Shown: in pieces, positions 443 through 45,614 of the stretch
How positions within the stretch are numbered: the stretch's first letter is position 1
Layout: each line of letters opens with the position of its first letter
Origin: Acidobacteriota bacterium
Lineage (GTDB): Bacteria > Acidobacteriota > Blastocatellia > Pyrinomonadales > Pyrinomonadaceae
Reading direction: 5' to 3'
Assembly (NCBI GenBank): GCA_003222945.1
Contig: QHXM01000093.1
Location: 1-50,180 of the forward strand
DNA length: 50,180 nt
Position numbers and translations under genes: made by a program
The notes under the pieces: model-generated
Told to the model about the DNA's origin: nothing
The model's database searches: none
Seen by the model: only the letters and a program-made list of their open reading frames with translations

Positions 443-523
443 AGGGATGAGGGCGGGGGGATGAGGGATGAAGTAAAAAGCTGTCGTTCGCTTTTCATCC
501 CTCATCCTTCCGCCCTCATCCCT
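443..523. repeat. Heptad-unit intergenic hairpin (H1)
   Basis: The left arm (443-471) and right arm (495-523) are inverted copies matching at 27 of 29 bases. The arm is built on a 7-nt unit of the type GGATGAG. The right arm ends within the stop codon of the TPR gene (522-524), and the left arm ends 8 nt before the start of the FHA gene, so the hairpin fills the gap between the two genes. Confidence 0.9.
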
Positions 524-1901
524 ACTTTCTACGTTTATCGTATTCTTTGCCAAGACGCTCCGCGTATCTCTGGGCTTCGGCGCGGTGTGTGCCGCCGAGC
601 GCGGCGCGTTGAAAGAGCGCGAGAGCGCGCAAGAGTTCGGCTCGCTCCATCTGTTTCGGCTCGCGCCCGTTCACTACGTTCATAGCCTGAAAGTAGTAAG
701 AATCATAATCAACAGGGTTCGCGCCCGTTGCCAGTGTGGGCGCAGGCGTTGCGCGAGGCGCTGTTGTTGGCGAAGGCTTCGGCGCTGCTGTTTCAGGTTC
801 GCGCGCTTGCGGCTGCTGCTCGGTTGTTCGCGTGTCGCTCGGGTGCGCTGTGTTAACTGCGACCTCTGGTGATCCCATCTCCGCCAGATGCTGACGGGCC
901 GATTGCGCTATCGGGGCTGAGTTTGAAGAGGCGATCTTTTGATAAGCCGTGCGCGCCTCATTCATCTCGCCCGCAAGACGGAGCGCATCGCCATAAGCGA
1001 GCCATGTCTCGTCGTCCACATTGTTTCCGCTCGCCGAGACCAGACGACGATAACTTTCCGCACCATCCTTGTAAAGCTTCTCTTCCGTTTGCGCGGAAGC
1101 CAGAGCGTGCCAGGCAGAAGTGTCGTCAGCGTTGCTCTGCGCAACAGTTTTATATTCTTCTATCGCCTCCGCGCGCGACCCTGTTCTCTCAAGCGCATTG
1201 CCCAAACGCATGTGCGCTTCCGCGTTAGATGGGTCAAGCTTCACGGCCTCGCGCAAGACATCTACGGCATGATTGAACTCGCCCGATTCGAGCAAGGTTT
1301 CTGCTTCCGCCAACTTGTCCTTCGCAAGTTGCTTTTGATCTGGAGCGGAAGCTGACTGCTCTGTAGTTTGCGCAGGACTCGCTTTGCGCGATAGAACGAA
1401 GGCCAGAACTACTGCCACAACCGCAACGCACAAAAGAGCGACGAGAGCGAATGTCCACGTTCGACGTGAACGAGCCTTCTGCGAAGCTCCGACCACTTGA
1501 GTAGGTGAAACTTCGGGCGCAGTAGTAGTAGCAGCGGGCTTTTCCGCTTCGACCTGTTTAGCCGCAAGCGTTGTCGTCTGCGGGGCGGCAGCAGCTTCTA
1601 CATTAGCCTGCTCCTTCTCTTTACCGTCTTGAGCATAATCGGCCTCGACACGACGAAGTATTTCGTTAATCTCGGCGCGGTCAACTCTGGATGTCCTGGA
1701 TGCTCCGCGTCGCTCGTCCTCTTTTGTGAGTCCGTCGGTTGCGCGGCCTTCGCCTTTGAGCGGGACTGTTTGAGCGAGCGGCGAGACAGGCTCTTCGCCT
1801 TCGTGCGCGCCGCCCGTCTTTAGCGGCGCTCCGCAAAGGCGACAGAATCGCGCTTCGGGCACTGCCGTCGCTCCACAACTTGGACATGGCCTAGACTTCA
1901 T
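522..1901 (-). CDS. Zinc-ribbon, single-pass membrane, TPR-repeat protein
   Basis: The 459-aa product has three parts. An N-terminal zinc ribbon with two CxxC knuckles (CPSC and CRLC, residues 6-24) comes first. A long low-complexity Ala/Thr/Glu linker and one membrane helix at about 149-170 (WTFALVALLCVAVVAVVLAF) follow. A TPR-like solenoid occupies about 190-325 (AEAHMRLGNALERTGSRAEA). The C-terminal part is Pro/Thr/Ala-rich with a final helical segment. The predicted topology is zinc ribbon in the cytoplasm and TPR outside, which is an inference. It starts 7 nt after the RDD gene stop, so the two are probably co-transcribed. It shares the zinc-ribbon design with the kinase and FHA protein upstream, which argues for one signalling unit. 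The exact role is unknown. Confidence 0.8.
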   Translation of the reverse strand: MKSRPCPSCGATAVPEARFCRLCGAPLKTGGAHEGEEPVSPLAQTVPLKGEGRATDGLTKEDERRGASRTSRVDRAEINEILRRVEADYAQDGKEKEQANVEAAAAPQTTTLAAKQVEAEKPAATTTAPEVSPTQVVGASQKARSRRTWTFALVALLCVAVVAVVLAFVLSRKASPAQTTEQSASAPDQKQLAKDKLAEAETLLESGEFNHAVDVLREAVKLDPSNAEAHMRLGNALERTGSRAEAIEEYKTVAQSNADDTSAWHALASAQTEEKLYKDGAESYRRLVSASGNNVDDETWLAYGDALRLAGEMNEARTAYQKIASSNSAPIAQSARQHLAEMGSPEVAVNTAHPSDTRTTEQQPQAREPETAAPKPSPTTAPRATPAPTLATGANPVDYDSYYFQAMNVVNGREPKQMERAELLRALALFQRAALGGTHRAEAQRYAERLGKEYDKRRK

Positions 1902-1908
1902 CTCTTAC

Positions 1909-2538
1909 TCATTGCACGGCGCGCGAACCCTCTATCGCGCTCCGCTTAACGAAGCGGCCTCTTGCGCGCCGCACGTCATCGCGCATAACAACAGTGCCTG
2001 CGATTATGTCATGGAGCGCTCGTGCGTTCTCGCTAAACGACGCGACCACAAATCCAAGACCAAGCAGAAGAATGAAAACTCCGGTCATGATGAGCGCGCC
2101 CGACACTACTTCGGCCAATAGCAGTCCGAGTCCTAGCATGAGGAAGAAAGGCGGATACAGAAGCGTTTGACGGAGTAACGCGCGCCACCACTTCAGGCGC
2201 TCGCCATCTCTTCTTCTAATGATAAGCCCCGTCGCCCACTTGCCCAAGGTCTGCCCACGCAGGATAGGCAGCCCTATGAAATTGATTACGGCGACAACGA
2301 CAGCAATCAAAATCCCTATCATCTCCGCATTGCTTGAAGATGCGCGCGCGTTATTTCCCATGCGGGCCAGCAGAGTGCTGAAGGCTATGATGCCCACCAG
2401 CAGGATGTAATCAATCAGCAGCGCACCGCAGCGCAAAGAGAAGGGCGCGCGAAATCTCTCCACAAGCGTCTGCGCCTGCTCGCGCATGTCCGGCATATCA
2501 GTCGAAAGCAACGATGGTGTCTCTATTCTTGCGGTCAT
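1909..2538 (-). CDS. RDD family integral membrane protein
   Basis: The 209-aa protein begins its membrane region with the RDD-family Arg-Asp arrangement (FSLRCGALLIDYILLVGI, about residues 34-52). Helices follow at about 75-95 (IGILIAVVVAVINFIGLPI) and 125-165, with the family's GxxxGKWATGL-type loop between them (GQTLGKWATGLIIRR). RDD proteins are small polytopic membrane proteins of mostly unknown function; some act in ion or osmotic tolerance. It lies between the kinase gene and the zinc-ribbon/TPR gene on the same strand, so it may be a membrane component or target of that system, which is an inference. The start ATG lies 7 nt from the arm of hairpin H2 and has no clear Shine-Dalgarno sequence. 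Confidence 0.85.
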   Translation of the reverse strand: MTARIETPSLLSTDMPDMREQAQTLVERFRAPFSLRCGALLIDYILLVGIIAFSTLLARMGNNARASSSNAEMIGILIAVVVAVINFIGLPILRGQTLGKWATGLIIRRRDGERLKWWRALLRQTLLYPPFFLMLGLGLLLAEVVSGALIMTGVFILLLGLGFVVASFSENARALHDIIAGTVVMRDDVRRARGRFVKRSAIEGSRAVQ

Positions 2539-2545
2539 AAAAAAA

Positions 2546-2646
2546 CAGGAGTCAGGAGTCAGAATCCAGAATTCAGAAGAAAAGAAAATCTGTAAGAGCG
2601 GTTCACAGCCTTATCCCCTTCTGGCTTCTGGCTCCTGGATTCTGCC
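2546..2646. repeat. Heptad-unit intergenic hairpin (H2)
   Basis: The left arm (2546-2579) is five heptads of the type CAGRAKY (CAGGAGT, CAGGAGT, CAGAATC, CAGAATT, CAGAAG). The right arm (2618-2646) is the inverse of similar heptads. The pairing is imperfect but keeps the 7-nt register. It sits between the kinase stop (2652) and the RDD start (2538). H16 near 40.3 kb uses the same unit. Confidence 0.85.
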
Positions 2647-2651
2647 TTTCC

Positions 2652-4445
2652 TCATCCCACTAAAAAATGCAATGTCGTTTCGCCAAGACGCAGTTTGTCG
2701 CCGCTTTCAAGAACGCGCGGCTGGCGAGGCGCTAGACGCACGGCGTCGTTAATTACTGTTCCATTTACAGATTCTAAATCTTCAATTAAAAATGTCTCGC
2801 CTTCGCGCCAGATTCTTGCATGACGGCGCGATACTTTTGTCTCAGGATCAAAACGCGAGAGATCAACTTCCGGGAAAATGTTTGACTGCGGATCGCTTCT
2901 GCCCAAAAGGTTGCTCTCTTTCTGCAAGATGAACGAAACGTCCAACTCAGTTGTTCCTGCAACGATTAACTTCGCCGTAGCACGCGCCGCCCGCAGTGCT
3001 GCGCTTGAGCCTACGCCGACGAGCGGCTGTTTCATGCCGCAGTGAGCGCAGAAAATATCGTCCGCTGCGATGCGTCCTCCACAGAAGCCGCAGAAAACGG
3101 TCTCGACCTGAATCGTCTCGCCGCCCAGATGTTGCGCAGGTATCGAGCCGTAACTGACTTCGCCTCTCCGAAGTCTCTCAAGATGATTTGCGATCACGTC
3201 GCGCATCTCCGCAGCAGAGCGAAAACGGCCTTCTGGCTTATACTCAACGGCTCGCATGAGTATGCGCTCCATCTCTGTAGAGATGCTCGGATTTATCTGG
3301 CGCGGGCGCGGGTTCTTAGTGAAGTCGAATATCAGAAGCGGATTGTCCTGCGGGTCTGAGCCTGTCAGAAGATGAAACATTGTCGCGCCTAAACTGTAGA
3401 TGTCCGTGCGCGGCTCAGCCTTGCCGCTGAAAAGTTCCGGCGGCGCGTAGCCCATTGTGCCCACAGCCGTCACGCCCTTCTCCTGCGGCGCAACCCAGCG
3501 CGCAATCCCGAAGTCAATCAACATCACGCGACCAGTGTTTCCGTCAATCATCAAATTCGCAGGCTTAAGGTCTCTGTAGATGATTGGCTTCGGACGCTTG
3601 TGCAAGTAGTCCAGAACGTCCGCAGCCTGCATGGACCATTCCGCGACGGTCTTTTCGTCAATGCGACCATTGGGGGCGTTTCGCAGGCGACCCGCGATGT
3701 CGCCGCCGGAAATATATTTCATGACGAGATAGAATCGCTCCTTCTCGTCATCGTAAAAGTAGTCGTAGATGGTCGGAATCGAAGGGTGTTCGAGCGAAGT
3801 CAGGAGCAAGGACTCGCGTTTGAAATCGCCAATCGCTTTTTCGTGCTGCAAGGGATCAAGATGAGATTCGACCATCTCTTTGACCGCGCGCGGGGCGTCG
3901 CCCAAATGCCTGTCTTTGGCAAGATAAACCGCGCCCATGCCGCCGCCGCCAATGCGACGCACAATCTCGTAGCGGCCATTCAGCACTGCGCCCGGGTCCA
4001 GTTGTTTGGCAGCGGCCTTGCGCCCCCCGGTCGAGCCTGCGCGCGCAGTTTCGACCGGCGGCGCGCTTTCATCTCCTTGAGCGACTCCGCCCGTAGCCTT
4101 CTCTTGAGTGGAAGCGCTTTGAGCCGCAGGATTGTCGGCATACGGCGCAGAAGTTCCGCTCGACGAAGAACCATTCTGCGCAGTGTCAGCGCGTGATTCG
4201 CTTGCAGAAGCTTCCGCGCTCGAACTCTCTTCGGCAATCGCTTTTGAGCTATCTGAATCCGACCCTTCGTCAGGGCTTTCCATGTCCACAAGTTGAGGGC
4301 TTCGGGCTTCTGCGGCGAAAGAGCTTCCGCCATCTGTGATAATGGTCGAGCCTGTTGCGGACACAATCGATTGTGCCGCGCCGCAGTTGCCGCAGAAGGG
4401 ATCATCAGGCGCAATCTTCGCGCCGCATTCGTGGCAGAAAGACAT
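2652..4445 (-). CDS. Serine/threonine protein kinase with two zinc ribbons and a C-terminal FHA domain
   Basis: I place the start at the ATG giving MSFCHECG rather than 30 nt upstream, because it puts the zinc ribbon at the N-terminus as in the sister proteins (597 aa). Order: zinc ribbon (about 3-25), acidic Ser/Ala-rich linker, Hanks-type kinase (about 158-425), second zinc ribbon (about 451-472), FHA domain (about 495-597). Kinase motifs are the glycine loop RIGGGGMGAVY, the lysine in RAVKEM, the catalytic loop YRDLKPANLM, metal-binding LIDFGIAR and the GTMGYAPPE activation segment. The usual HRD histidine is Tyr. FHA signatures are LLGRSD, VSRRHARI and SVNGTVIN. It should phosphorylate Ser/Thr and recruit phosphoproteins, possibly itself, through its own FHA. 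No membrane helix is seen, so it is probably cytosolic. Confidence 0.92.
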   Translation of the reverse strand: MSFCHECGAKIAPDDPFCGNCGAAQSIVSATGSTIITDGGSSFAAEARSPQLVDMESPDEGSDSDSSKAIAEESSSAEASASESRADTAQNGSSSSGTSAPYADNPAAQSASTQEKATGGVAQGDESAPPVETARAGSTGGRKAAAKQLDPGAVLNGRYEIVRRIGGGGMGAVYLAKDRHLGDAPRAVKEMVESHLDPLQHEKAIGDFKRESLLLTSLEHPSIPTIYDYFYDDEKERFYLVMKYISGGDIAGRLRNAPNGRIDEKTVAEWSMQAADVLDYLHKRPKPIIYRDLKPANLMIDGNTGRVMLIDFGIARWVAPQEKGVTAVGTMGYAPPELFSGKAEPRTDIYSLGATMFHLLTGSDPQDNPLLIFDFTKNPRPRQINPSISTEMERILMRAVEYKPEGRFRSAAEMRDVIANHLERLRRGEVSYGSIPAQHLGGETIQVETVFCGFCGGRIAADDIFCAHCGMKQPLVGVGSSAALRAARATAKLIVAGTTELDVSFILQKESNLLGRSDPQSNIFPEVDLSRFDPETKVSRRHARIWREGETFLIEDLESVNGTVINDAVRLAPRQPRVLESGDKLRLGETTLHFLVG

Positions 4446-4550
4446 CTCTATTGATGGCTCGTTAGCGAGGGGCAAGATACTTTTTCAGAGTTCTGGATTC
4501 AGATTAAAGGGTCAAGTGCGCGTTCATGCTACACGCGCCGCCGCCCGTCT

Positions 4551-5138
4551 CTATTTAACTATATGAAAACGTAAAAAAGTCTTTCCAACGATAATCTCGT
4601 CGCCATCGCGCAAAGGTTGTTTGTCGCCCGGCAGAAGCCTTCGACCGCGATTTATGAAAGTGCCGTTCGTAGAACCCAAATCTTCAATGAAATACTGTCC
4701 GTTTCGCCGAAGTATGCGCGCATGACGACGCGACACTTTCGCCTCCGGGTCGTCCGCATCCAGATCGACATCCGGGAAGATTCCACCGTCCGCATCCCAA
4801 CGACCTATCTGCGATTCCTCGTCGCTCAAAGGAAACTGTTTTCCGGCGGAACGACCGCGCTCAATCACAAGGCGTGCGTGCGCGCCATCCATCAAGGCTA
4901 TTGAGCCTGCCGAGACTGCATAGGCTGGCTCGACTGCGCGCGCCGAAGTAATCTCATGATTTTTAGCGACCGAAGCCTGCGCTTCCCTTATCTCCTGGCT
5001 GTCCGTAGGGCTGCCGGAGTTGTTGCCCGTGCCGGACTGCTTCTTAGCCTGCTCGCCTTGATTCAGAGGCGCGCCGCACTCGTCGCAATATTTCGAGCCG
5101 TCTAAATTTTCAGTACTGCATCTTTCGCAGATTGTCAT
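4551..5138 (-). CDS. Zinc-ribbon plus FHA domain protein
   Basis: The 195-aa protein has an N-terminal zinc ribbon (CERCS...CDECG, residues 4-21), a polar linker and a C-terminal FHA domain at about 85-195 with the signatures QIGRWD, VSRRHARI and GSTNGTFIN. The FHA closely resembles the one at the end of the neighbouring kinase, including the insert FPDVDLDADDPEAKVSRRHA, so the two probably arose by duplication. It is the first gene of the minus-strand signalling cluster, 105 nt upstream of the kinase gene. The likely role is an adaptor recognising phosphothreonine made by that kinase, which is an inference from domains and position. Confidence 0.88.
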   Translation of the reverse strand: MTICERCSTENLDGSKYCDECGAPLNQGEQAKKQSGTGNNSGSPTDSQEIREAQASVAKNHEITSARAVEPAYAVSAGSIALMDGAHARLVIERGRSAGKQFPLSDEESQIGRWDADGGIFPDVDLDADDPEAKVSRRHARILRRNGQYFIEDLGSTNGTFINRGRRLLPGDKQPLRDGDEIIVGKTFLRFHIVK

Positions 5139-5475
5139 AACCTTTTATCCCGTCGTGCAATTCAGGCTGAGTGGGAGAGTGCGCCGCCCCTTACCCGATA
5201 AAAAAGCAGGCTAAGCCGCGCCGCCGTCTCGCGCGAGAAACTGTCGTATTGTAGCGCGAATCCTGAGCGTGCGCCAATAATGCTTTTCGTAGCACAGGGT
5301 CTAATCAATCTTGCATATAAAGATAAATTAAATTTTCACCACAGAGAACACAGAGGGCACAGAGGAAAGCGATTTGAGATAAGAAATTTGAAATCTCAAC
5401 TCCGCCATTTTAAATTTCTAATTCTCCCTCTGTGCCCTCTGTGTTCTCTGTGGTTAATCTCTTCTTTCTTAACGC
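5139..5475. other. Divergent intergenic region
   Basis: This region separates the leftward signalling cluster from a rightward gene. It should carry promoters for both, but I see no convincing consensus pair. The right half is occupied by composite hairpin H3. The ORF running through the hairpin reads HREHRGHRGK-type repeats and is not a real gene. Confidence 0.6.
5338..5454. repeat. Nonad-unit composite hairpin (H3)
   Basis: The left arm (5338-5366) consists of 9-nt units CACAGAGAA, CACAGAGGG, CACAGAGGA. The right arm (5423-5454) is its inverse with one extra C, nearly perfect over 28 bp. The roughly 56-nt loop contains a second inverted pair (AGAAATTT and AAATTTCT), so a small hairpin nests in the large one. 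H18 near 41.7 kb has the same design. Confidence 0.92.
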
Positions 5476-6288: not shown

Positions 6289-6325
6289 AACCAGAGGGTC
6301 TTGCGGCATCTTTCAATTTTCAATT

Positions 6326-7906: not shown

Positions 7907-7982
7907 AGTTTAAACTTGGACTTCTTACGGAGCGACCCGCCTCGTAAAGTAAACTACGCCGGAAATCCCTGTTTTGAATCTT

Positions 7983-9092: not shown

Positions 9093-9109
9093 ATTCCGAG
9101 AAAAGAATT

Positions 9110-11348: not shown

Positions 11349-11351
11349 GAG

Positions 11352-16420: not shown

Positions 16421-16483
16421 AGTGATGAGTGATGAGTGATGAGCAAAAACCAAGCTCTTACTCATCATTCATCACTCATCACT
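16421..16483. repeat. Heptad-unit intergenic hairpin (H5)
   Basis: The left arm 16421-16444 (AGTGATG repeated) and right arm 16460-16483 are inverted copies matching at 22 of 24. The arm starts 3 nt after the permease 3 stop and ends 3 nt before the permease 4 ATG. Confidence 0.92.
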
Positions 16484-18823: not shown

Positions 18824-18941
18824 GCTGTCAGTAGTCAGTTGTCAATGGTCAGTGGTTTTCGCTTCATAAGCCTGTCGCTTGAAAATTAAAGGTTCAACTC
18901 GATAAAGCGAACAACTAACAACGGACAACTGATTACTGACC
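18824..18941. repeat. Heptad-unit intergenic hairpin (H7)
   Basis: The left arm at about 18824-18864 is GTCAGTA, GTCAGTT, GTCAATG, GTCAGTG, GTTTTCG. The right arm at about 18904-18941 is the imperfect inverse. H19 upstream of mutL uses the same GTCAGTN unit. Confidence 0.85.
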
Positions 18942-19894: not shown

Positions 19895-19966
19895 TCCGTG
19901 AAACGACGCTAAACAACGCGAAATGAATTCTAATCCTCTTCACGTTGTTTAGCGTGATTTCGCGGA
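19895..19966. repeat. Nonad-type intergenic hairpin (H8)
   Basis: The left arm 19895-19920 and right arm 19941-19966 match at 22 of 26 as inverted copies, built on CGCGAAA/ACGCTAAAC elements. H9 near 27.7 kb shares the GACGCTAAA unit. It lies between oppD and the oppF remnant. Confidence 0.82.
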
Positions 19967-29647: not shown

Positions 29648-29693
29648 AGTTTCAAGTTTCAGGTTTCAAGTTAACAACCTGAAACTTGAAACT
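29648..29693. repeat. Heptad-unit intergenic hairpin (H10)
   Basis: Perfect 18-bp inverted arms (29648-29665 and 29676-29693) enclose a 10-nt loop. The unit is GTTTCAA/GTTTCAG, 7 nt. The right arm plus a T run ends just before the ATG at 29700, so despite its terminator-like look it sits in the leader of the GT2 gene. Confidence 0.92.
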
Positions 29694-32534: not shown

Positions 32535-32633
32535 TCCCTTGAAAAACCCTTCTTGACGATTACCGGACCAACTGATTAACGAGATGCATTATACCGTCTT
32601 TGGGCTGTCGTTTCAAGCATGAAACAAGAAAAT

Positions 32634-32710
32634 AGTTCCAAGTCTCAGGCTCCATGTTCCAAGAGAAAGGTGGTTTTCAACTTGAAACATGGAACTTGAG
32701 ACTTGGAACT
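32634..32710. repeat. Heptad-unit intergenic hairpin (H11)
   Basis: The left arm 32634-32663 and right arm 32681-32710 match at 27 of 30 as inverted copies (GTTCCAA, GTCTCAG, GCTCCAT, GTTCCAA). The right arm ends 1 nt from the atpC stop codon. Confidence 0.93.
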
Positions 32711-32711
32711 T

Positions 32712-33131
32712 TTAAGTGATATTCGGAGCGCCTGTTGCTAATTGTAGTCGCACCACGGAGCGCTCAAGGCGTGCGCGTGCTATCTCAAAATCTTCTTCAG
32801 TCCCTGTAAAAGAGATTAACGTCTTCTCGGCGTGCTCACGCGCAATGCGCGCACGCGCGGCATCGATCTCTTCAGGACGCTCTGCTATCTCAGCAAGCAC
32901 GGAGGCGCGGTCTGCATTGACCTCTACGAATCCGCCGGAGACGAGCAACTTGTGCGTCACTCCGCCTTGCGCGTAGGAGAGAACGCCTGTTTGAAGCTGA
33001 GAGATGAGCGGCGTGTGTCCGGGCAGTATGCCAAGCTCACCGTTCATACCCGGCACGTTCACGGAATCAACAGTTTCTGCCAGCACGCGGCGCTCAGGCG
33101 TAACAACCTCTAATTGAATCTGTTCAGCCAT
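32712..33131 (-). CDS. atpC: F1F0 ATP synthase subunit epsilon
   Basis: The 139-aa product shows the epsilon N-terminal beta-sandwich (IQLEVVTPERRVLAETVDSVNVPGMNGELGILPGHTPLISQL), the VSGGFVEVNADRASVLAE strand pair, and a C-terminal helical hairpin (DAARARIAREHAEKTL...ARARLERSVVRLQLA). It is the central-stalk subunit that couples F1 to F0 and inhibits hydrolysis. It is downstream of atpD with hairpin H12 filling the 76-nt gap; its ATG is 5 nt from the arm with no Shine-Dalgarno sequence. Hairpin H11 abuts its stop codon, so the gene is bracketed by two different hairpins. Confidence 0.95.
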   Translation of the reverse strand: MAEQIQLEVVTPERRVLAETVDSVNVPGMNGELGILPGHTPLISQLQTGVLSYAQGGVTHKLLVSGGFVEVNADRASVLAEIAERPEEIDAARARIAREHAEKTLISFTGTEEDFEIARARLERSVVRLQLATGAPNIT

Positions 33132-33136
33132 AAAGA

Positions 33137-33205
33137 AGTGATGAGTGATGAGTGATGAGTAATGAGTTAAGACAGGCTCTTACTCATCACTCATTACTCA
33201 TCACT
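33137..33205. repeat. Heptad-unit intergenic hairpin (H12) between atpD and atpC
   Basis: The left arm 33137-33160 (AGTGATG repeated) and right arm 33182-33205 match at 23 of 24 as inverted copies. It is the same unit as H5. It runs from 2 nt after the atpD stop to 5 nt before the atpC start. Confidence 0.93.
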
Positions 33206-33207
33206 GC

Positions 33208-34746
<1,539 letters not shown>

Positions 34747-34824: not shown

Positions 34825-34926
34825 AAGGCAAAAGTAAAAAGGCAAAAGGTAAAAGGGAAGACGAAAAACTCGCTCTCCCTCTTCTTAACTTTTGCCTTTT
34901 ACCTTTTACCTTTTTACTTTTGCCTT
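34825..34926. repeat. Heptad-unit intergenic hairpin (H13)
   Basis: The left arm 34825-34860 (GGCAAAA, GTAAAAA, GGCAAAA, GGTAAAA, GGGAAG) and right arm 34889-34926 are near-perfect inverted copies. The right arm contains most of the HD-GYP gene's stop codon (34925-34927). Confidence 0.92.
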
Positions 34927-36101: not shown

Positions 36102-36141
36102 AATGAAGCGCTCGGATGAAGCGCCACTACAGGAGCGGAAG

Positions 36142-36621
36142 GTGACACAGGAGATAAAGCAGAAGCTACAGGCGGAACTGGATGAATTGGAGAGCGAACT
36201 GCGCGTGCATCTGCCGAAGGAGATAAAGCGCGCTCTGGAATTCGGCGACCTGCGCGAAAATGCAGAGTATCGCGCAGCACTCGATAGGCAGAACATCGTT
36301 AAGGCGCGAATCGTCGAGCTAAGACAGCGCATAAGCGAGATAGGCTCTATAGATTTATCGAAAGTGCCCAGAGACCGCGCTGGCTACGGCTCAACGCTCC
36401 TACTCTACGACTCGGAGCGCGATGAAGAGATAACCTATCGTCTGGTCACACCCGAAGAGAGCGACCCGCAGGCCGGGATGATCTCAACAATGTCGCCTGT
36501 AGGCAAAAGTCTTCTGGGCAAAGAAGAGGGCGACGAAGTAACCGTGCGAACGCCCGCAGGCGCGCGTACATTTGAAATCAAGCGATTGACGACGATCCAT
36601 GACGAAGTGAAAAGTGAATAG
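36142..36621 (+). CDS. greA: Transcription elongation factor GreA
   Basis: I choose GTG 36142 ([20 protein letters not shown]) because AGGAG lies 6 nt upstream and it gives 159 aa, the normal GreA length; the ORF-track ATG adds 13 residues. The N-terminal coiled-coil carries the functional tip [19 protein letters not shown] (acidic residues that act in the RNA polymerase secondary channel). The C-terminal FKBP-like domain contains [35 protein letters not shown] and [12 protein letters not shown]. It rescues backtracked polymerase by stimulating transcript cleavage. The last codons and TAG stop lie inside the left arm of hairpin H14, so the tail EVKSE is repeat-encoded. Confidence 0.93.
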
Positions 36622-36667
36622 TGAAAAGTTAAAAGTTAAAAACCGTCTTCACTGTTCACTTTTCACT
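36606..36667. repeat. Heptad-unit hairpin overlapping the greA stop (H14)
   Basis: The left arm starting at 36606 (GTGAAAA, GTGAATA, GTGAAAA, GTTAAAA, GTTAAAA) pairs with the right arm 36651-36667 at 16 of 17 positions. The greA stop codon 36619-36621 lies in the left arm. Confidence 0.88.
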
Positions 36668-37505: not shown

Positions 37506-37569
37506 GAATGGGAGAAGAGCGGCTCAGAAAGCTTTTATTAAACTTCTTCTCGAAACGTTTTTGAGGTAA

Positions 37570-38311: not shown

Positions 38312-38328
38312 GAGAACAGCGACGCCAC

Positions 38329-38619
38329 ATGCCCCTCCCCAACTTTCTACGAAGGAAGAAGACAGACCACGAAGCAGAACGGCGTGCGCGCCTTCTAAAG
38401 TTCGGGCGCATAGTTGACGGCACAATCTTGGACACAGGCATTGATGACGCTGGCGCTGTCAGGCAAATCTATTACAGGTACGAAGTGAGCGGCGTCGAAT
38501 ACGAATCATCGCAACTCTTAGACGAAGAGCAGCGCCACCGCGAATCAAGCTACTTCCCCGGCGCTTTCGTAACCATTCGCTACGATCCTCATCAACCCGG
38601 CAATTCAGTAGTAGTCTGA
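38329..38619 (+). CDS. Small DUF3592-like protein
   Basis: The 96-aa soluble protein has a charged N-terminus (MPLPNFLRRKKTDHEAERRARLLKFG) and a beta-rich body: VDGTILDTGIDDAGAVRQIYYRYEVSGVEYESS and the ending FVTIRYDPHQPGNSVVV, the strand pattern of DUF3592. Unlike most members it has no membrane helix. Its role is unknown. It starts 17 nt after the broken zinc-ribbon gene, and its TGA stop lies in the left arm of hairpin H15, which leads directly into accC. Confidence 0.75.
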   Translation: MPLPNFLRRKKTDHEAERRARLLKFGRIVDGTILDTGIDDAGAVRQIYYRYEVSGVEYESSQLLDEEQRHRESSYFPGAFVTIRYDPHQPGNSVVV

Positions 38620-38684
38620 AGTCTAAAGTCTGGAGTCCAGAGTCCGTTTGACTCTCCAGACTCCAGACTCTAGACTCCAGACTT
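38613..38684. repeat. Heptad-unit hairpin upstream of accC (H15)
   Basis: The left arm 38613-38644 (AGTCTGA, AGTCTAA, AGTCTGG, AGTCCAG) pairs imperfectly with the right arm 38650-38684. It contains the preceding stop codon and ends 3 nt before the accC ATG. Confidence 0.9.
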
Positions 38685-38687
38685 CTC

Positions 38688-40241
38688 ATGTTTCGTAAAA
38701 TTCTAATCGCCAATCGCGGTGAGATTGCCGTGCGAATCATTCGCGCGTGCCGCGATCTCGACATCTCGCCCGTTGCTGTTTACTCGGAAGCGGACACGGA
38801 CTCTCTTCACGTCAGACTTGCGGACGAAGCCTACTTGATAGGTCCTGCGCCTTCAATCGAAAGCTACTTGCGAATTGAGAAAATTATAAATGCGGCTCGC
38901 GCGTGCGGGGCAGAGGCGATTCATCCCGGCTACGGCTTTCTAGCGGAGAACGCGGATTTCGCGCAGGCAGTCCTGGATGCGCGTCTGACTTTCATCGGTC
39001 CAAGCCCTGAAGCTATGCGATTGATGGGCGCGAAGACGAGTGCGCGGCGTGTGGCGACGGAAGCTGGAGTGACGGTTGTTCCGGGCACGACCGAGCCGCT
39101 TGAATCTTTGGATGAAGCGCGGCGTGTGGCTGCGCAGATAGGCTACCCAGTGATGCTGAAAGCTTCTGCCGGAGGCGGCGGCAAGGGTATGCGGTTCGTT
39201 GCGACTGAAGAAGAGTTGCCGTCGGCTTTCGACACGGCGCAATCGGAAGCCGCCGCCGCATTCGGAAACCCGGAAGTCTATCTTGAGAAAGCAGTGGAAC
39301 GCCCGCGCCACATAGAGATTCAAATCTTTGCGGACCAGCACGGAAACTTCGTACACCTCGGCGAGCGCGAATGCTCCATACAGCGCCGCCACCAGAAAGT
39401 TATTGAAGAATGCCCGTCGCCGATTAATGACGCGGCTTTGCGCGCTTCGATGGGCGAGGCTGCGATCAAGGCTGCGCGTGCTGTGAACTACGTGGGCGCG
39501 GGCACAGTCGAGTTTCTTGTTTCGGATCGAACGCGAGAGTTCTTCTTCCTTGAGATGAACACGCGCCTTCAGGTCGAGCATCCTGTCACAGAGTTGGTCA
39601 CAGGCTTTGATCTTGTGCGCGAGCAGATAAGTGTTGCGTTGGGTGAACCGCTCTCTTTCAGGCAGGAAGATGTTTCATGGCACGGTCACGCAATCGAATG
39701 CCGCGTCTATGCAGAAGACCCTGATAGCAACTTTCTACCGTCGCCGGGGCGCATAATGCATTTGCGCTCTCCCTCCGGCCCCTGTGTGCGCGATGACAGC
39801 GGAGTAGAAGCGGGCGCGGAGGTCTCGATCTATTACGACCCTATGATCTCAAAGCTCGCGGCGTGGGGACGAACACGGAGTGAGGCAATTGATCGCCTGC
39901 GCCGCGCTCTGGATGAATACATGGTCGGCGGAATCAAGACGACGCTCCCCTTCTTCCGCGAAATCGTGCGCGACGCGGAGTTCACAAATGGAAACCTTGA
40001 CACAGGCTTCATCTCACGCTTCTTCGAGCGACGCGCGGAAGCCGCGCTTCGTATGAAATCTGAAGAGACGGACGAAGCGGAAACAACGCGCCGCGACATG
40101 GCTGCAATCGCCGCCGCTCTTGATTACATGCAGGCGCAGAAGCAGAATTCAACAGGCAATCAAACACATGCACAGGAGGAGCAGCAGAGCAACTGGCGTC
40201 TAACGGGGCGCGCAGCATTACATCGAAGAATTTATGAATGA
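38688..40241 (+). CDS. accC: Biotin carboxylase (acetyl/propionyl-CoA carboxylase type)
   Basis: The 517-aa protein has the complete biotin carboxylase fold: FRKILIANRGEIAVRIIRACRDL, GYGFLAENADFAQA, the ATP-grasp glycine loop MLKASAGGGGKGMRFV, RPRHIEIQIFADQHGNFVHLGERECSIQRRHQKVIEE, FFLEMNTRLQVEHPVTE, and HAIECRVYAEDP. It is longer than E. coli AccC (449 aa), with a roughly 45-residue polar tail rich in Gln that is not part of the fold. It carboxylates biotin on a carrier protein using bicarbonate and ATP. The next gene encodes a biotin carrier, so the pair probably forms an acyl-CoA carboxylase; carboxyltransferase genes are not in the window. The ATG directly follows hairpin H15. Confidence 0.95.
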   Translation: MFRKILIANRGEIAVRIIRACRDLDISPVAVYSEADTDSLHVRLADEAYLIGPAPSIESYLRIEKIINAARACGAEAIHPGYGFLAENADFAQAVLDARLTFIGPSPEAMRLMGAKTSARRVATEAGVTVVPGTTEPLESLDEARRVAAQIGYPVMLKASAGGGGKGMRFVATEEELPSAFDTAQSEAAAAFGNPEVYLEKAVERPRHIEIQIFADQHGNFVHLGERECSIQRRHQKVIEECPSPINDAALRASMGEAAIKAARAVNYVGAGTVEFLVSDRTREFFFLEMNTRLQVEHPVTELVTGFDLVREQISVALGEPLSFRQEDVSWHGHAIECRVYAEDPDSNFLPSPGRIMHLRSPSGPCVRDDSGVEAGAEVSIYYDPMISKLAAWGRTRSEAIDRLRRALDEYMVGGIKTTLPFFREIVRDAEFTNGNLDTGFISRFFERRAEAALRMKSEETDEAETTRRDMAAIAAALDYMQAQKQNSTGNQTHAQEEQQSNWRLTGRAALHRRIYE

Positions 40242-40252
40242 AGGGAAAGATA

Positions 40253-40352
40253 GAAGTCAGGAGTCAAAATACAGAATTCAGAAGGGAAAGGGCAGCGAAG
40301 CCTCCTCTTTCTTTTATTCTGAATTGCGACTTCTGGATTCTGTATTCTGCTT
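40253..40352. repeat. Heptad-unit hairpin between accC and the biotin carrier gene (H16)
   Basis: The left arm at about 40253-40283 (CAGGAGT, CAAAATA, CAGAATT, CAGAAGG) and right arm at about 40317-40352 keep a 7-nt register with imperfect pairing. It is the same CAGRAKY unit as H2. The right arm ends about 2 nt before the next ATG. Confidence 0.82.
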
Positions 40353-40354
40353 TT

Positions 40355-40864: not shown

Positions 40865-40867
40865 AAA

Positions 40868-41665
40868 ATGAATAACAATAGATTAAATTTGAAAGTGGAA
40901 AGGGAAAGGGGGATGAAAAACCCTTCTCCCTTTTCGCCTTTAACCTTTGACGCTTCTTCCCTTCGCTGCCTTCTATGGGACATTGACGGCACTCTCATGC
41001 GCTCATCGCGCATAGACGCTTTCAAGGACTACACGGTGCCCATGCTCGAAGGAGTCTTTGGGACGGCAGGGCGTTTGCCTGAGATGACTGTTTCGGGCAT
41101 GACTGATTTACAGATTGTTGCGGAAGCTCTGCGCGACGAAGGGTTCACGCACGAGCAGATACGCGAGCGGATTGACGATATGCGTGAGCGCTACATGCAG
41201 GAGATGGAGCGTGCGACGCGCGAGTGTGCCGTGCTGTTCTATCTTCTTCCGGGAGTGCGCGCTTGTTTGGAAGCAACTCACAATCACCCGCGCTATCACA
41301 ACGCTCTTCTGACGGGAAACATAGAGCCTGCGGCTCATTTGAAGATGCGAATCGTTGGTCTCTCCGAGTTCTTCGATCTGCCGGGCGCGTTTGGCGACGA
41401 ATCTCACGACCGCCGCGATCTTCCAGCGCTCGCAGCCGGGCGCATCAACGCTCATCTCAATCTAGACCTTCAACCCTCGCAGTTTATCATTATAGGTGAC
41501 ACGCCAAACGACATAGCCTGCGCACGCCACTTCGGAGCAAAGTCCGTAGCCGTCGCAACAAGCCGCATGTACTCAGTAGATGATCTTCTGGCTTGTGAGC
41601 CTGATGCGCTCCTGCCTGACCTGTCTGATGTTGAGTTGGTGATGCAGACGTTCGCCAAGCTGTAG
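40868..41665 (+). CDS. HAD family hydrolase
   Basis: The 265-aa ORF starts 3 nt after the carrier gene. An ATG at 40913 (MKNPSPFSPLTFD) is an equally plausible start because the first 15 codons fall in a purine-rich arm (H17) and GGAAAGGG-type sequence precedes it. HAD motifs are CLLWDIDGTLMRSS (nucleophile Asp and acid/base Asp), ALLTGNIEPAAHLKM (motif II), and FIIIGDTPNDIACARHFGAKSVAVAT (motifs III-IV). The cap is helical, as in the phosphoglycolate phosphatase/beta-phosphoglucomutase group. The substrate is unknown, and its operon position with accC does not point to one. Confidence 0.88.
   Translation: MNNNRLNLKVERERGMKNPSPFSPLTFDASSLRCLLWDIDGTLMRSSRIDAFKDYTVPMLEGVFGTAGRLPEMTVSGMTDLQIVAEALRDEGFTHEQIRERIDDMRERYMQEMERATRECAVLFYLLPGVRACLEATHNHPRYHNALLTGNIEPAAHLKMRIVGLSEFFDLPGAFGDESHDRRDLPALAAGRINAHLNLDLQPSQFIIIGDTPNDIACARHFGAKSVAVATSRMYSVDDLLACEPDALLPDLSDVELVMQTFAKL
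40892..40942. repeat. Weak heptad-type hairpin in the HAD gene leader (H17)
   Basis: The purine arm 40892-40912 (GAAAGTG, GAAAGGG, AAAGGGG) and pyrimidine arm 40921-40942 pair at roughly three quarters of positions. It overlaps the first codons of the HAD ORF, with ATG 40913 in the loop. Confidence 0.6.
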
Positions 41666-41676
41666 AAGCAATTTTC

Positions 41677-41789
41677 AACACAGAGGACACAGAGGGAAGA
41701 TTTAGAAATCTTAAATCCGCTATCTCTAATTTCTAGTCTGCTATTTTCACTCTCTATAAATTCTCTGTGCCCTCTGTGTCCTCTGTGGT
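41677..41789. repeat. Nonad-unit composite hairpin (H18)
   Basis: Perfect 18-bp inverted core: CACAGAGGACACAGAGGG at 41679-41696 and its complement at 41770-41787. The roughly 73-nt loop contains a second inverted pair TAGAAAT/ATTTCTA. The architecture and unit are those of H3. It lies in the convergent gap between the HAD gene and mutL. Confidence 0.92.
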
Positions 41790-41829
41790 AAACCTATTTC
41801 ATTTATCAGTGTCAGTCCCAGAGTAATAA

Positions 41830-43756
41830 TCAGCTTCTGTGAAAACCTTTTTCTATGTCGCGCGTTGCGAGGCGCAGGATGACGGGGCGACCGTGCGGGC
41901 ATGTTGTGGGCGAAGATGTGAGCAGCAGGCGATCAATCAGCCAGCGCATCTTCTCAAGCGCGAGCGGAGTATTGATTTTTATGGCGGCGCGGCAGGCCAG
42001 CGAAGCTGCGACCTCATCTCGAAAAGTCGCGCGCGTAGAGCCGCGTTTCTCCGCATCAACAGTCTCTAAAACTTCTGCGAGCATGTTGCGCGCTTCACCT
42101 GCCGGTAAATCCGCAGGCACAGCTTTGATTGCGACCGTTCGGCCTGAGAGCCGCATCAACGCGAAGCCGTAAGCCTCAAGCTCTTCTGCTACGGAATCGA
42201 AAGCTGCCGTCTGCGCTGGCGTCAAATCGAATGTTTCGGGCATCAGTAGATTCTGCGAATCTGCCGGGCGCGCGTTTTCGAGCGCGCGATATTTATCGAA
42301 GAGTATGCGCTCGTGCGCCACGTGCTGGTCAATCAAGAGCAATCCTTCATCATCTGTAGCTATGATGAAACTCTCTTCAAGCTGTCCGAGCGGGCGAATG
42401 TTTGTCGAGATATCTTCGAATGAGACTTCGCGGACCAGATTTGCAGCCGAGACGAGCGGCGGCAGAGTGCTTTTAGAATTCTCAGGGGTCTCGGTCTTCC
42501 TCTCTTCGTTGACGACAGGCACGCTCTTCTCAATCGTCTCTTGTATGAAAGGAACGACAGTCGCGTTGTCGGCAACCTGCCCTGCCTCCTGCGATGCAGA
42601 TTGAGTGTGGCGCAGGATGGCGTCGAGTCCTCTGGCAGTATCGGCCTTCGGCTTCGTCGCGCATGTCGAAAGTTGAATCTTCACTTCCGCTCCACTCTGT
42701 AGATTGAGCCGCGTTTCTCGTCGGCGTCACCGTCTCATGGACCGCCTCTATGCCGCGCGCGTAACCTGCGCTTGCAAGAGCGGCGCGCACAGATTCGCGC
42801 ACGGCGTCCGAGACGGCAGCAGCGCGACGAAACCGCACTTCCGTTTTGGCGGGATGCACGTTCACGTCAACCTCTTCGAGCGGGACATCAAGAAAAAGCA
42901 GTGCCGCAGGATAGACGCCGTGCGGGAGAACCGCGCGGTAGCCTTCCGAGAGCGAGCGGCTAACGAGACGGTCGCGCACGTAGCGACCGTTGATGAAAAG
43001 ATACTGTGCATCGCGCGACGTGCGGCGTTCGCGCGGGGCTGATACGAACCCGCACACAAGCGCAACGCTCGTGTGCCCGCCTTCGACCTCCAGAAGATTT
43101 TCCAGAAATTCCGCGCCGAAGATTTGATAAGCGCGCTCGCGTAAATCGGACGCGGGCGCAGCGCGCAAGGTCTCGCGCCCGTTGTTCGTCAGGGTGAATG
43201 CAATCTCAGGGTGAGCGAGCGCGTAATGCGTGACCAGGTTCGTCAGATGAAAGCTCTCGGTCGCTTCCGAGCGCAGGAACTTTCGACGCGCAGGGATGTT
43301 GAAGAAGAGATCGCGCACCGTGATTGTCGTCCCCTTTGGGTGCGCAGCATCCTTCACGTCGCGCATACGCCCGCCTTCAATCAGGACGCGCGTGGCAGCT
43401 TCGGCCTCTTCCGTTTTAGTCACAAGCTCTACGCGCGCAACCGACGCGATTGAAGCAAGAGCCTCGCCGCGAAAGCCAAGCGTTGCAATCGCATTCAAAT
43501 CTTCCGCGCGGCTGATCTTCGACGTGGCGTGCCGCTCGAAAGCCAGCACAGCATCATCGCGCGTCATCCCACAGCCATCATCCGCGATGCGCAAGAGCCT
43601 GCGGCCTCCCGCCTCAACGTCAACAACCACGCGCCGCGCGCCAGCATCAATAGCGTTCTCGACCAACTCCTTCGCAACCGAAGCCGGGCGCTCCACGACT
43701 TCGCCCGCCGCAATCTGATTAGCCAATTGATCTGAGAGGACGCGAATCTTTGACAT
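41830..43756 (-). pseudogene. mutL: DNA mismatch repair protein MutL, frameshifted in the linker
   Basis: The first frame (ATG 43756) encodes the whole GHKL ATPase: ANQIAAGEVVERPASVAKELVENAIDAGA, IADDGCGM, HATSKI, TLGFRGEALASIASVA, NIPARRKFL, and VDVNVHPAKTEVRF. It then drifts into nonsense after about residue 355. The second frame (42684-41830) supplies the C-terminal dimerisation domain: IIATDDEGLLLIDQHVAHERILFDKY (close to the endonuclease motif DQHA-x2-E) and CPHGRPVILRLATRDIEKGFHRS. The two frames overlap around 42600-42735, in the non-conserved linker, so one indel accounts for the break and no domain is lost. Either a real loss of mismatch repair or a sequence error explains it. Confidence 0.9.
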
Positions 43757-43761
43757 AAAAG

Positions 43762-43835
43762 ATGTCAGTGGTCAGTAGTCAGTTGTCAGTTGTATCAGCT
43801 TTTGCAACTGACAACTGACAACGGACAACTGACAG
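43762..43835. repeat. Heptad-unit hairpin between bshC and mutL (H19)
   Basis: The left arm 43762-43792 (GTCAGTG, GTCAGTA, GTCAGTT, GTCAGTT) and right arm 43805-43835 match at 27 of 31 as inverted copies, with a 12-nt loop. It starts 5 nt from the mutL ATG and ends 2 nt from the bshC stop. Confidence 0.93.
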
Positions 43836-43837
43836 CT

Positions 43838-45523
43838 TTACAAATACACTATCTGATGATCGGAAGAACCCAGGTTGATAGCATCGTAAATCCAACTGAT
43901 GATGTAAGAGCCGTGACGCGCGAGCAGGCTTGTGATGTTGATGTGGCGCTCCTGCAAAGTTTTGTCGGGGTAGAGCGAAACAACGGCGCGTTCCAGTTGA
44001 CGATGCGCGGCGCGGTCGCGGCTCATCTGCGCGCGATGAAAGCGCGAGCGCAAGCCCTCGAGTTGATAGTTGATCTTGCGCCGCCCCGTCTCAAGCGCGT
44101 CCGCGAGCGTAGGATCAACGCTGTGCAGTTGCTCTTTCAGAGAATCCAATTCACGGTTGACCGTCTCCTCTGTATGCTTGAAGGTTTGCGCAGTCTCCGC
44201 GCCCAGGTGCTCTTCAACTACGCGCGCGAGCACAACGTCCAATCCTTCAAAGAAGTCGCTCAGGCCCAGCCCGTAGCGTTCGAGCGTGCGCCACATGTGC
44301 CGCTCAACAATCGTCATACTCGCGCGATGAAGAATCGGCGTCGCCGGACGATTGAGAACGCGATAGACTTCAGCCGTCTGAGCGAAGTAGGCGATTTCTG
44401 CCGCTCCGCCGAAGTAGGCGACGGTAGGAAGAAGATAGTCTTGAACGACTGCGCGAAGCGTAACGTTCGGGCTGAAACGCTCTGGCTCTCGCGCGGCCAT
44501 TTCAGCCAACTCTTCAACAGAATATTCACGCCGCGCATCCTTCATCTTGTAGCGGCCATCCTTTGTGCGCGCGACCGCGTGACGAGTGCCGTCCTCCGTA
44601 TGAAGAAAGAGCGGGAAGGCGTTTTCAGATGTTGCCACCTGCGCGTGATAGCCTGCGGCTTCCAACTCGCTGCTGCGCGCCACTAAATTGCTCGCAATCT
44701 CTGGCGCATGACGCGCGGCCTCAGCATAAAGCGGCGCGGCGAGCTTTTTCAATTTTGCGTCGAGAGGGTCTAGCAGGATCAGACCATAACAACCAATCAA
44801 CTTTGTAATCATGCGCGCGAAGGCTTCGCCATACTTTCGTCCCGAACCCCAGGTCTCGCGCAAGAGTCTTTCAACTTCGGGCGTGAATTCCGTCGTCGGC
44901 AAAACTTCAAGCAGTCGCTTTATCGTCTCCGCAATCGAATCATCAAGCACGACGCTCCCGACGGGTGCGCCTTCTTTGTGCATCTCTGCGGAAACGGAGA
45001 TGCTCGCCAGACGGCAATCGCAGCCTATGAACTCTACGGCAGCGACCTCAGCGAAATCGTGATCTTCGGTTGCGATCCAGAAGACTGGAACGGCGGGCGT
45101 TCCGCGCTGCAAGAGGCATCCAGCGAGTTTGACTGCCGAGAGAGCTTTGTAGATTGTGTAGAGTGGTCCGGTGAAGAGTCCTGCCTGCTGGCCTGAGACA
45201 ATTGCCACGCAATCCTTTTCGCGCAATCGTTCGATATTGGCTAAAGTTTCCTTGGTCGCGCCCCAGCCTCTATTCATCTCTTCGAGCGCGTCGCAAAGCT
45301 CGCGGCGATCAGTCCCGTAAGCACTCAGGACTTCAGGCGCGCGCTCGGCCAACTCGTGATGAAAGCGAACTGCTGAAGGATAGAAGCGGCGGAGTGCTGT
45401 GGGATCGCGCAGGTAATCAAGAAAGAGCCGCGACTGGTGCGGCACGCGCTCAAACGGCAGAGTCTCAACTCTCAGCCCTGCCTCTTCAGGCGTGCTATAA
45501 CATGCGGCTTCCGTCGTGCTCAT
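43838..45523 (-). CDS. bshC: Bacillithiol biosynthesis cysteine-adding enzyme BshC
   Basis: The 561-aa protein matches BshC (YllA): an N-terminal Rossmann-like part with LPFERVPHQSRLFLDYL and VAIVSGQQAGLFTGPLYTIYKALSAVKLA, the signature WIATEDHDFAEV, a central FLHTEDGTRHAV segment, LRAVVQDYLLPTVAYFGGAAEIAYFAQ, and a C-terminal antiparallel coiled coil (FKHTEETVNRELDSLKEQLH). It adds cysteine to glucosaminyl-malate in the last step of bacillithiol synthesis. bshA and bshB are not in the window. It is upstream of mutL and downstream of the DapA-like gene, separated from each by a hairpin. Confidence 0.95.
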   Translation of the reverse strand: MSTTEAACYSTPEEAGLRVETLPFERVPHQSRLFLDYLRDPTALRRFYPSAVRFHHELAERAPEVLSAYGTDRRELCDALEEMNRGWGATKETLANIERLREKDCVAIVSGQQAGLFTGPLYTIYKALSAVKLAGCLLQRGTPAVPVFWIATEDHDFAEVAAVEFIGCDCRLASISVSAEMHKEGAPVGSVVLDDSIAETIKRLLEVLPTTEFTPEVERLLRETWGSGRKYGEAFARMITKLIGCYGLILLDPLDAKLKKLAAPLYAEAARHAPEIASNLVARSSELEAAGYHAQVATSENAFPLFLHTEDGTRHAVARTKDGRYKMKDARREYSVEELAEMAAREPERFSPNVTLRAVVQDYLLPTVAYFGGAAEIAYFAQTAEVYRVLNRPATPILHRASMTIVERHMWRTLERYGLGLSDFFEGLDVVLARVVEEHLGAETAQTFKHTEETVNRELDSLKEQLHSVDPTLADALETGRRKINYQLEGLRSRFHRAQMSRDRAAHRQLERAVVSLYPDKTLQERHINITSLLARHGSYIISWIYDAINLGSSDHQIVYL

Positions 45524-45533
45524 CTTTTTTTTG

Positions 45534-45614
45534 AGTTATGAGTTATGAGTTCTGAATTTTGAATTAAAAGCCTTCCGCCCTTAACTCAAAATTCAAAACT
45601 CATAACTCATAATT
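45534..45614. repeat. Heptad-unit hairpin between the DapA-like gene and bshC (H20)
   Basis: The left arm 45534-45567 (GAGTTAT, GAGTTCT, GAATTTT) and right arm 45581-45614 match at 31 of 34 as inverted copies. The right arm contains the DapA-like stop codon (45600-45602) and the codons for its last residues NYEL. Confidence 0.93.

What the first reader, a model, noticed from the sequence alone, without database searches (positions are those of the whole stretch)
443..45614. About 20 intergenic hairpins share one grammar: arms made of 3-5 imperfect 7-nt units, or about three 9-nt units
Arm sequences differ between loci (GATGAGT, GTCAGTT, CAGRATY, AGTCTGG, GAGTTAT, GTTTCAA, GGCAAAA, GTGAAAA in the 7-nt class; CACAGAGGN, GACAGGATN, GACGCTAAA in the 9-nt class). 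The architecture is constant: a drifting short tandem repeat, a small loop, then its inverse. Most unit types occur twice in this window (H1/H6, H2/H16, H3/H18, H5/H12, H7/H19, H8/H9, H10/H11). Heptanucleotide tandem repeats (STRRs) are known in filamentous cyanobacteria, but systematic inverted pairing with two period classes looks like a distinct repeat system.
Basis: seen in the sequence. Interest (0 to 1): 0.9.

Follow-up and report, generated by a model that had tools for sequence, protein, structure and literature searches.

The report
Dispersed hairpins built from seven-letter units
This soil bacterium (an Acidobacteriota, not a cyanobacterium) carries many hundreds of dispersed palindromic DNA elements, mostly built from imperfect 7-letter repeats and sitting directly after stop codons; relatives often keep a hairpin in the same gap but swap in a different one, which suggests the hairpin matters, or is tolerated there, more than its sequence.

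Summary
The window has 16 strict hairpins (0 in shuffles); all arms have a period of 7 (or 14) or 9-10. A further 520 kb of the same genome shows the same, about 680 periodic hairpins extrapolated to the whole genome. The host is not a cyanobacterium but a Pyrinomonadaceae MAG (Acidobacteriota), and its family shares the system. The hairpins are families of dispersed palindromes: arms and loop are copied together, flanks are not. 105 of 125 in same-direction gene pairs start within 15 nt of the upstream stop codon; they are depleted between divergent genes. In several slots (atpD-atpC, bshC-mutL) most relatives carry a hairpin, but of unrelated units, replaced wholesale even at 92-95% protein identity. 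Arm mismatches show no G.U bias (96 G.U, 95 A.C; classical terminators 21:5), so long-term in-place RNA selection is not supported. RAYT/IS200 and reverse-transcriptase genes are not required. Best reading: REP-like dispersed palindromes with heptad arms, copied at DNA level, accumulating at stop-start junctions. Cyanobacterial heptad hairpins are a known precedent, so this is a new variant of a known kind; the mover and any function remain unproven.

The parts
443..523 (.). hairpin, GGGATGA heptads, 30-nt arms, between two minus-strand genes, overlapping the stop of 522-1862(-)
2553..2637 (.). hairpin, CAGAATY heptads, between 1909-2538(-) and 2652-4445(-)
5335..5457 (.). hairpin, 9-nt class CACAGAGGN, divergent gap; loop related to that of 41679-41787
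16421..16483 (.). hairpin, GTGATGA heptads, fills the gap between two MacB/FtsX permease genes (3 nt to stop, 3 nt to start)
18827..18940 (.). hairpin, GTCAGTN heptads
19895..19966 (.). hairpin, 9-10-nt class GACGCTAAA
27731..27814 (.). hairpin, 9-nt class, between convergent genes
29648..29693 (.). hairpin, GTTTCAA heptads
32631..32713 (.). hairpin, GTTCCAA heptads, on the stop codon of atpC; a promoter-like TTGAAA-N17-TATAAT for ruvB follows
33133..33209 (.). hairpin, GTGATGA heptads, fills the atpD-atpC gap; slot mostly occupied by hairpins of other units, or by other palindromes, in relatives
34825..34926 (.). hairpin, GGCAAAA/GGTAAAA heptads
36606..36667 (.). hairpin, GTGAAAA heptads, includes the stop codon of a GreA/GreB gene; a promoter-like TTGACA-N17-TATGAT follows
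38610..38686 (.). hairpin, AGTCTGG heptads, fills the gap before the biotin carboxylase gene 38688-40241(+); slot conserved with changing units
40265..40349 (.). hairpin, CAGAATA heptads, foot 5 nt before the next start codon
41679..41787 (.). hairpin, 9-nt class CACAGAGGN, between convergent genes
43758..43839 (.). hairpin, GTCAGTT heptads, fills the bshC-mutL gap; slot occupied in most of 30 genomes with unrelated units
45536..45612 (.). hairpin, GAGTTAT/GAATTTT heptads, on the stop codon of the DHDPS-like gene 45600-46550(-)

Best explanation
The hairpins are copies of several families of dispersed palindromic repeats of about 60-135 bp. A copy consists of two 20-40-nt arms, each made of 3-5 drifting heptads (a minority of 9-mers), around a family-specific loop, often with an A-run before and a T-run after. 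SHOWN: arms and loop are copied together while flanks are not; families have many full-length copies per genome; each heptad family keeps one handedness; most start at a stop codon and they avoid divergent (promoter) gaps; whole copies are replaced by copies of other families in the same slot; inside a slot a copy decays by one-sided mutation. INFERRED: new copies arise by DNA-level copying without a dedicated HUH transposase or reverse transcriptase (replication slippage gives the heptads, template switching or ectopic conversion the mirrored arms and the spread). They persist at stop-start junctions because there a transcribed palindrome folds away and leaves the stop and next start codon close together, and in some slots because a hairpin between the two genes is useful (translational coupling, step-down of downstream expression, or protection of the upstream mRNA).
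For: 16 of 16 strict window hairpins periodic, 0 in shuffles; same genome-wide. Heptads match their partner heptad at 91% but the neighbour heptad at 76%, so arms mirror each other unit by unit. Loops of nearest-arm pairs are related (30% with z>4 against 9% for random pairs, p=2e-4), flanks are not. The GTTTCAA element has 40-76 matching stretches per genome in four genomes (fewer distinct elements, because a palindrome can match on both strands), the best over most of the 79 nt at 85-92%. Its loop recurs in both orientations in genus g20, and 18 of 21 tandem copies begin within 20 nt of a stop. Handedness: no heptad class of G000 occurs with its reverse complement in the 5' arm; same-sense pairs 409 against 83 opposite. 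Position: 105/125 tandem hairpins within 15 nt of the stop; 0.98, 0.73 and 0.20 per kb in tandem, convergent and divergent gaps; where >=60 nt are free, 17 of 30 lie at the stop against 3.3 expected. Slot kept, family changed; where arms differ, loops are unrelated in 29 of 30 pairs. Slot occupancy is heterogeneous, p=3e-4. G.U = A.C (96:95) against 21:5 in classical terminators, Fisher p=0.003; upstream A equals downstream T (0.39, 0.38).
Against: No mover is identified, and no target duplication or clean insertion/empty pair within one species was seen. Very high occupancy in a few slots despite replacement looks more like selection for a hairpin than like passive insertion. Nesting of one element in another, which would explain replacement, is rare (1 of 315). 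Many hairpins in the sample (40 of 122 in G000) are not clearly periodic. The strict short-loop subset has G.U 25, A.C 18, so a weak RNA signal is not excluded.
Confidence: 0.62

Rival explanations
1. They are functional intercistronic RNA hairpins kept by selection on structure (partial terminators, mRNA 3' protection, or ribosome-stalling/coupling elements); the sequence is free, so families turn over.
For: Tight stop-codon anchoring; persistent occupation of atpD-atpC, bshC-mutL and the biotin-carboxylase slot by hairpins of unrelated families, including REP-like ones; slot heterogeneity p=3e-4 and loss of Shine-Dalgarno cores next to hairpin feet, 1/25 against 73/215 (partly trivial because the 3' arm occupies that stretch); E. 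coli REPs within 15 nt of a stop reduce translation (PMC12306157).
Against: No G.U over A.C excess and no U-tract asymmetry although the same test sees both in classical terminators; orthologous hairpins show mainly one-sided, pair-breaking changes; several slots are empty or only 0-22 nt long in other genomes. The symmetry tests do not exclude selection on mere presence, because copies are replaced quickly and can insert in either orientation.
Confidence: 0.35
2. Ordinary intrinsic terminators with long stems.
For: Position after stop codons, A-run/T-run ends, promoter-like sequences behind two of them (window 32631 and 36606).
Against: Many lie inside tight operon junctions with no room for a promoter (e.g. 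inside the atp operon); A/T ends are symmetric; no G.U bias; dispersed families with shared loops.
Confidence: 0.1
3. Pure mutational by-product: tandem heptad slippage plus local template switching creates each hairpin in place, without dispersal.
For: Heptads are the commonest long simple repeats in bacteria (cited in PMC4679880); template switching creates and homogenises hairpin arms (PMC8794818, PMC8604942); mismatches are symmetric.
Against: Shared loops and fixed handedness among dispersed copies; anchoring at stop codons; no loop inversion between orthologues in the well-aligned pairs.
Confidence: 0.12
4. Classical REP/REPINs or MITEs moved by RAYT/IS200 transposases.
For: Size, extragenic position, palindromy; REP-like palindromes of other families do occupy the same slots.
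Against: Y1_Tnp has no match in hairpin-rich G007 and G011 and is abundant in hairpin-poor G010 and G013 (densities); heptad arms; no GTAG/CGTC tag in the listed elements. Both MAGs are only about 90% complete.
Confidence: 0.08

Closest known systems
STRR / heptad-armed hairpins of cyanobacteria (hupS-hupL spacer, hoxW region)
   Same: 7-bp repeats that fold into hairpins between genes; suggested roles in transcript stability or translational coupling (PMC2670836)
   Different: There described at single loci; here many hundreds per genome in another phylum, as loop-sharing families anchored at stop codons
P6b stem-loop of the Nostoc trnL group I intron (Class I TDNGATT / Class II NNTGAGT)
   Same: Stem built from one of two heptad motifs; one class has repeatedly replaced the other in the same place (PMC4476775)
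   Different: Inside an intron, two classes; here intergenic, dozens of classes, many slots
REP / REPIN elements
   Same: Short dispersed extragenic palindromes, often next to stop codons (PMC3733652, PMC12306157)
   Different: GTAG REP stems are 5-13 bp and CGTC stems 8-9 bp, each with a tag; these have about 18-41-nt heptad arms, no tag seen, and no consistent link to RAYT
TAACTGA direct repeats of Beggiatoaceae
   Same: Intergenic heptads shared across phyla (PMC4679880)
   Different: Direct repeats, mostly just before start codons, only one indirect repeat reported in that genome

Membership tests
REP/REPIN (GTAG or CGTC superfamily) | short stem with unpaired GTAG or CGTC tag at one end | tested here: not met
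   By inspection of about 80 elements listed; arms mostly 18-41 nt, ends A-rich/T-rich, no constant tag
REP/REPIN (GTAG or CGTC superfamily) | dispersed, extragenic, many copies | tested here: met
REP/REPIN (GTAG or CGTC superfamily) | associated RAYT (Y1_Tnp) gene (GTAG class) | tested here: not met
   No Y1_Tnp match in hairpin-rich G007 and G011; no correlation with density by eye
Cyanobacterial STRR | tandem, degenerate heptanucleotides | tested here: met
   lag-7 match 0.62 against 0.23-0.31 at other lags up to 13
Cyanobacterial STRR | occurs in cyanobacteria | tested here: not met
   Nearest named genomes are Acidobacteriota/Pyrinomonadaceae
Intrinsic terminator | GC stem followed by a U-tract on the transcribed strand, stronger than the A-tract on the other side | tested here: not met
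   A upstream 0.39 = T downstream 0.38, against 0.36/0.49 in the control
Structural RNA under selection | G.U preferred over A.C; two-sided compensation | tested here: not met
   96:95; 2 two-sided Watson-Crick changes against about 27 one-sided ones, a few non-periodic stems included
MITE | target-site duplication and a transposase with matching ends | tested here: inconclusive
   No duplication seen by eye at filled and empty slots; Y1_Tnp and RVT_1 not required; other transposases not tested
Rfam families | match to a curated RNA family | tested here: not met
   0 matches at gathering scores in the window

The most novel reading that the evidence does not exclude
A sequence-agnostic hairpin module: the bacterium (and its family) needs or exploits a stem-loop between particular operon genes that brings the stop codon next to the following start codon, and fills those slots again and again with whichever dispersed palindrome family is active. 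Function would then be conserved at the level of position and foldedness while sequence is exchanged like a cassette.
Probability: 0.3. Interest if true: 0.82.

Novelty: new variant of a known kind. Interest (0 to 1): 0.62.

Why it matters
Comparative RNA biology usually takes conserved sequence plus compensatory change as the sign of a functional hairpin. Here position is kept while the hairpin itself is swapped wholesale, and compensatory change is rare, so covariation methods would miss any function. The system also makes an old question testable: where the heptad hairpins long known in cyanobacteria come from and how they move, with hundreds of copies per genome, over a hundred genomes of one family, and slots with empty, heptad and REP-like alleles.

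Tried and rejected
RAYT/IS200 transposase as mover: rejected by distribution. Reverse transcriptase as mover: none found in 8 hairpin-bearing genomes. Rfam: nothing. RNA-level selection by G.U:A.C asymmetry: not seen with a working control. Non-periodic hairpins of Acidobacteriota: 37:30, also no bias. Compensatory evolution in orthologous hairpins: rare. Loop inversion as a sign of template switching between orthologues: not seen in well-aligned pairs. Nested insertion as the way of replacement: rare with this finder (1 of 315), though the atpD-atpC slot of G014 looks nested by eye. Unit sharing between slots of one genome: two clear cases (G015, G007) but not significant overall. 'Heptads give stops in all three frames': 68 of 94 on the coding strand, 55 opposite, 39.5 shuffled; suggestive at most, many units have no stop. 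Nostoc plasmid records for a direct cyanobacterial comparison were not held. A first pass over the atp slot ignored locus orientation and was redone.
Full report
WHAT WAS CHECKED. An ungapped search for inverted repeats (loop <=100, arm score >=15) finds 16 hairpins in the window and none in three dinucleotide shuffles; every one has its best arm autocorrelation at lag 7/14 or 9-10. With a looser threshold (>=12) there are 21 against 0-3 in shuffles, of which about 18 are of the described kind. In 267 kb of further contigs of the same genome there are 58 hairpins and 1 in the shuffle, with mean arm match 0.62 at lag 7 and 0.23-0.31 at the other lags from 2 to 13. In 571 kb in all: 122 hairpins, 74 with period 7, 8 with period 9, 40 without clear period. 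Extrapolated to 4.74 Mb this is about 680 periodic hairpins (about 1,000 of all kinds).

WHO IT IS. The best named relatives of the biotin carboxylase at 38688 are Acidobacteriota, several of them Pyrinomonadaceae (lineage). The window is a contig of a 325-contig MAG, G000. It is not a cyanobacterium. Relatives in the same family carry the same kind of hairpins at up to 2.7 periodic ones per 10 kb, while G021 and G022 have none in 40 and 60 kb. As a marker, the GTCAGTN triple occurs in several sampled Blastocatellia families and is rare in the rest of the phylum. Because relatives are independent assemblies, the hairpins are not an assembly artefact.

ANATOMY. Median arm 27.5 nt, loop 22 nt, span 80 nt. 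Each heptad matches its partner in the other arm at 91% but its neighbour in the same arm at 76%: the order of unit variants is mirrored, which two independently evolving tandem arrays would not give. Handedness is fixed: among the heptad classes of G000 none occurs with its reverse complement in the 5' arm, and over all genomes 409 pairs share a unit in the same sense against 83 in the opposite sense. The 5' arm has more G than C in 107 of the 118 hairpins where the two differ. The ends are often AAAAGC...GCTTTT, equally on both sides: A in the 8 nt upstream 0.39, T in the 8 nt downstream 0.38.

THEY ARE DISPERSED FAMILIES. Hairpins with the most similar arms also have related loops (30% with z>4 against 9% for random pairs, p=2e-4) but unrelated flanks. 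The GTTTCAA element taken from one slot of G020 has 76, 76, 66 and 40 matching stretches in G020, G065, G066 and G000, the best over most of the 79 nt at 85-92%. Because a palindrome can match on both strands, the number of distinct elements is lower. In most of the g20 copies examined a common loop recurs, in either orientation relative to the gene; in the G000 copies the loop differs. 18 of 21 tandem copies begin within 20 nt of a stop codon.

WHERE THEY SIT. In 125 same-direction gene pairs with a periodic hairpin, 105 hairpins start within 15 nt of the upstream stop codon (median 4 nt). Density per kb is 0.98 in tandem, 0.73 in convergent and 0.20 in divergent gaps. Where at least 60 nt are free in the gap, 17 of 30 still lie at the stop, 3.3 expected. 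In 46 of 101 the hairpin fills the gap to within 15 nt of both codons. Next to such feet a Shine-Dalgarno-like core is present in 1 of 25 genes against 73 of 215 without a hairpin, partly because the 3' arm takes that place.

SLOTS ARE KEPT, HAIRPINS ARE EXCHANGED. At atpD-atpC, bshC-mutL and the gap before the biotin carboxylase gene, most relatives with a gap of more than about 50 nt have a hairpin there, but made of different heptads. Genomes without one have gaps of 0-22 nt in several cases. In genus g20, the slot at L291:8474 holds a GTGACAA hairpin in G065 and G066 and a GTTTCAA hairpin in G020, although the flanking proteins are 92-95% identical; L293:2604 and L291:16575 show similar exchanges. 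When arms differ between orthologous slots, loops are unrelated in 29 of 30 pairs; when arms are related, loops are related in the same orientation in 6 of 10. So whole elements are replaced. In the atpD-atpC slot some genera carry REP-like palindromes of other families instead (e.g. GTAGCACAGGCTTCAGCCTGTG-type pairs in G003, G010, G128). Occupancy differs strongly among slots (chi2 31.9, 10 df, Monte Carlo p=3e-4, counts taken by hand).

IS IT RNA OR DNA THAT KEEPS THE ARMS ALIKE? On the transcribed strand, an RNA stem tolerates G.U but not A.C. In 125 tandem hairpins there are 96 G.U and 95 A.C mismatches. The same procedure on classical terminators of other phyla gives 21 to 5 and a downstream T excess (Fisher p=0.003). 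Orthologous hairpins change mostly on one side only: about 27 one-sided changes against 2 two-sided Watson-Crick changes (a few non-periodic stems are included). Hence copies look born near-perfect and then decay, rather than being mended in place. This does not exclude selection for the mere presence of a hairpin in some slots, since copies are replaced quickly and can enter in either orientation.

WHAT MOVES THEM. Not settled. Y1_Tnp (RAYT/IS200) has no match in hairpin-rich G007 and G011 and is abundant in poorer genomes; RVT_1 is missing from G000, G001, G002, G011, G015, G020, G065 and G066. Some of these MAGs are only 82-91% complete. Copying by replication slippage, template switching or ectopic conversion fits what is known of such processes (PMC8794818, PMC8604942) but is inferred here.

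COMPARISON WITH WHAT IS KNOWN. Hairpins of 7-bp repeats between genes are on record in filamentous cyanobacteria, with suggested roles in transcript stability or coupling (PMC2670836). In the Nostoc trnL intron one heptad class has repeatedly replaced another in the same stem (PMC4476775), the same behaviour as in these slots. REPs share position and dispersal, and those within 15 nt of a stop affect translation in E. coli (PMC12306157), but REP-defining tags and RAYT association (PMC3733652) are not met here. The literature held gave no report of heptad palindromes in Acidobacteriota; the library is not complete. I therefore rate it a new variant of a known kind.

Noticed in passing
window 41830-43756 (-): mutL is split: the N-terminal part (42530-43756) and the MutL_C domain (41830-42684) lie in different frames, while most relatives have one open frame of about 600-745 aa. 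It is a frameshift in this genome or an assembly error.
   Followed up: partly
L239, L240, L241, L243, L247, L248 (atpD-atpC slot of G067, G128, G010, G133, G003, G130): REP-like palindromes of other families (GTAGCACAGGCT..., CCTGCGGTAGCGGG...) occupy the slot that holds heptad hairpins elsewhere.
   Followed up: partly
G026 (same class, 8.4 Mb): The GTCAGTN triple pattern occurs over 1,000 times (607 forward, 474 reverse), with long tandem arrays, far more than in any other genome searched.
   Followed up: no
L256 (G014, atpD-atpC slot): A GGGATGA hairpin appears to contain a second hairpin of CAGAATA-like units in its loop, possibly one element inserted in another.
   Followed up: no
G020 gap orthologous to L293:8825 (G066): A large inverted repeat with long arms that themselves hold short hairpins (CCCGGCACTTTAGTGCCGGG) stands in a G020 gap and is absent in G066.
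   Followed up: no
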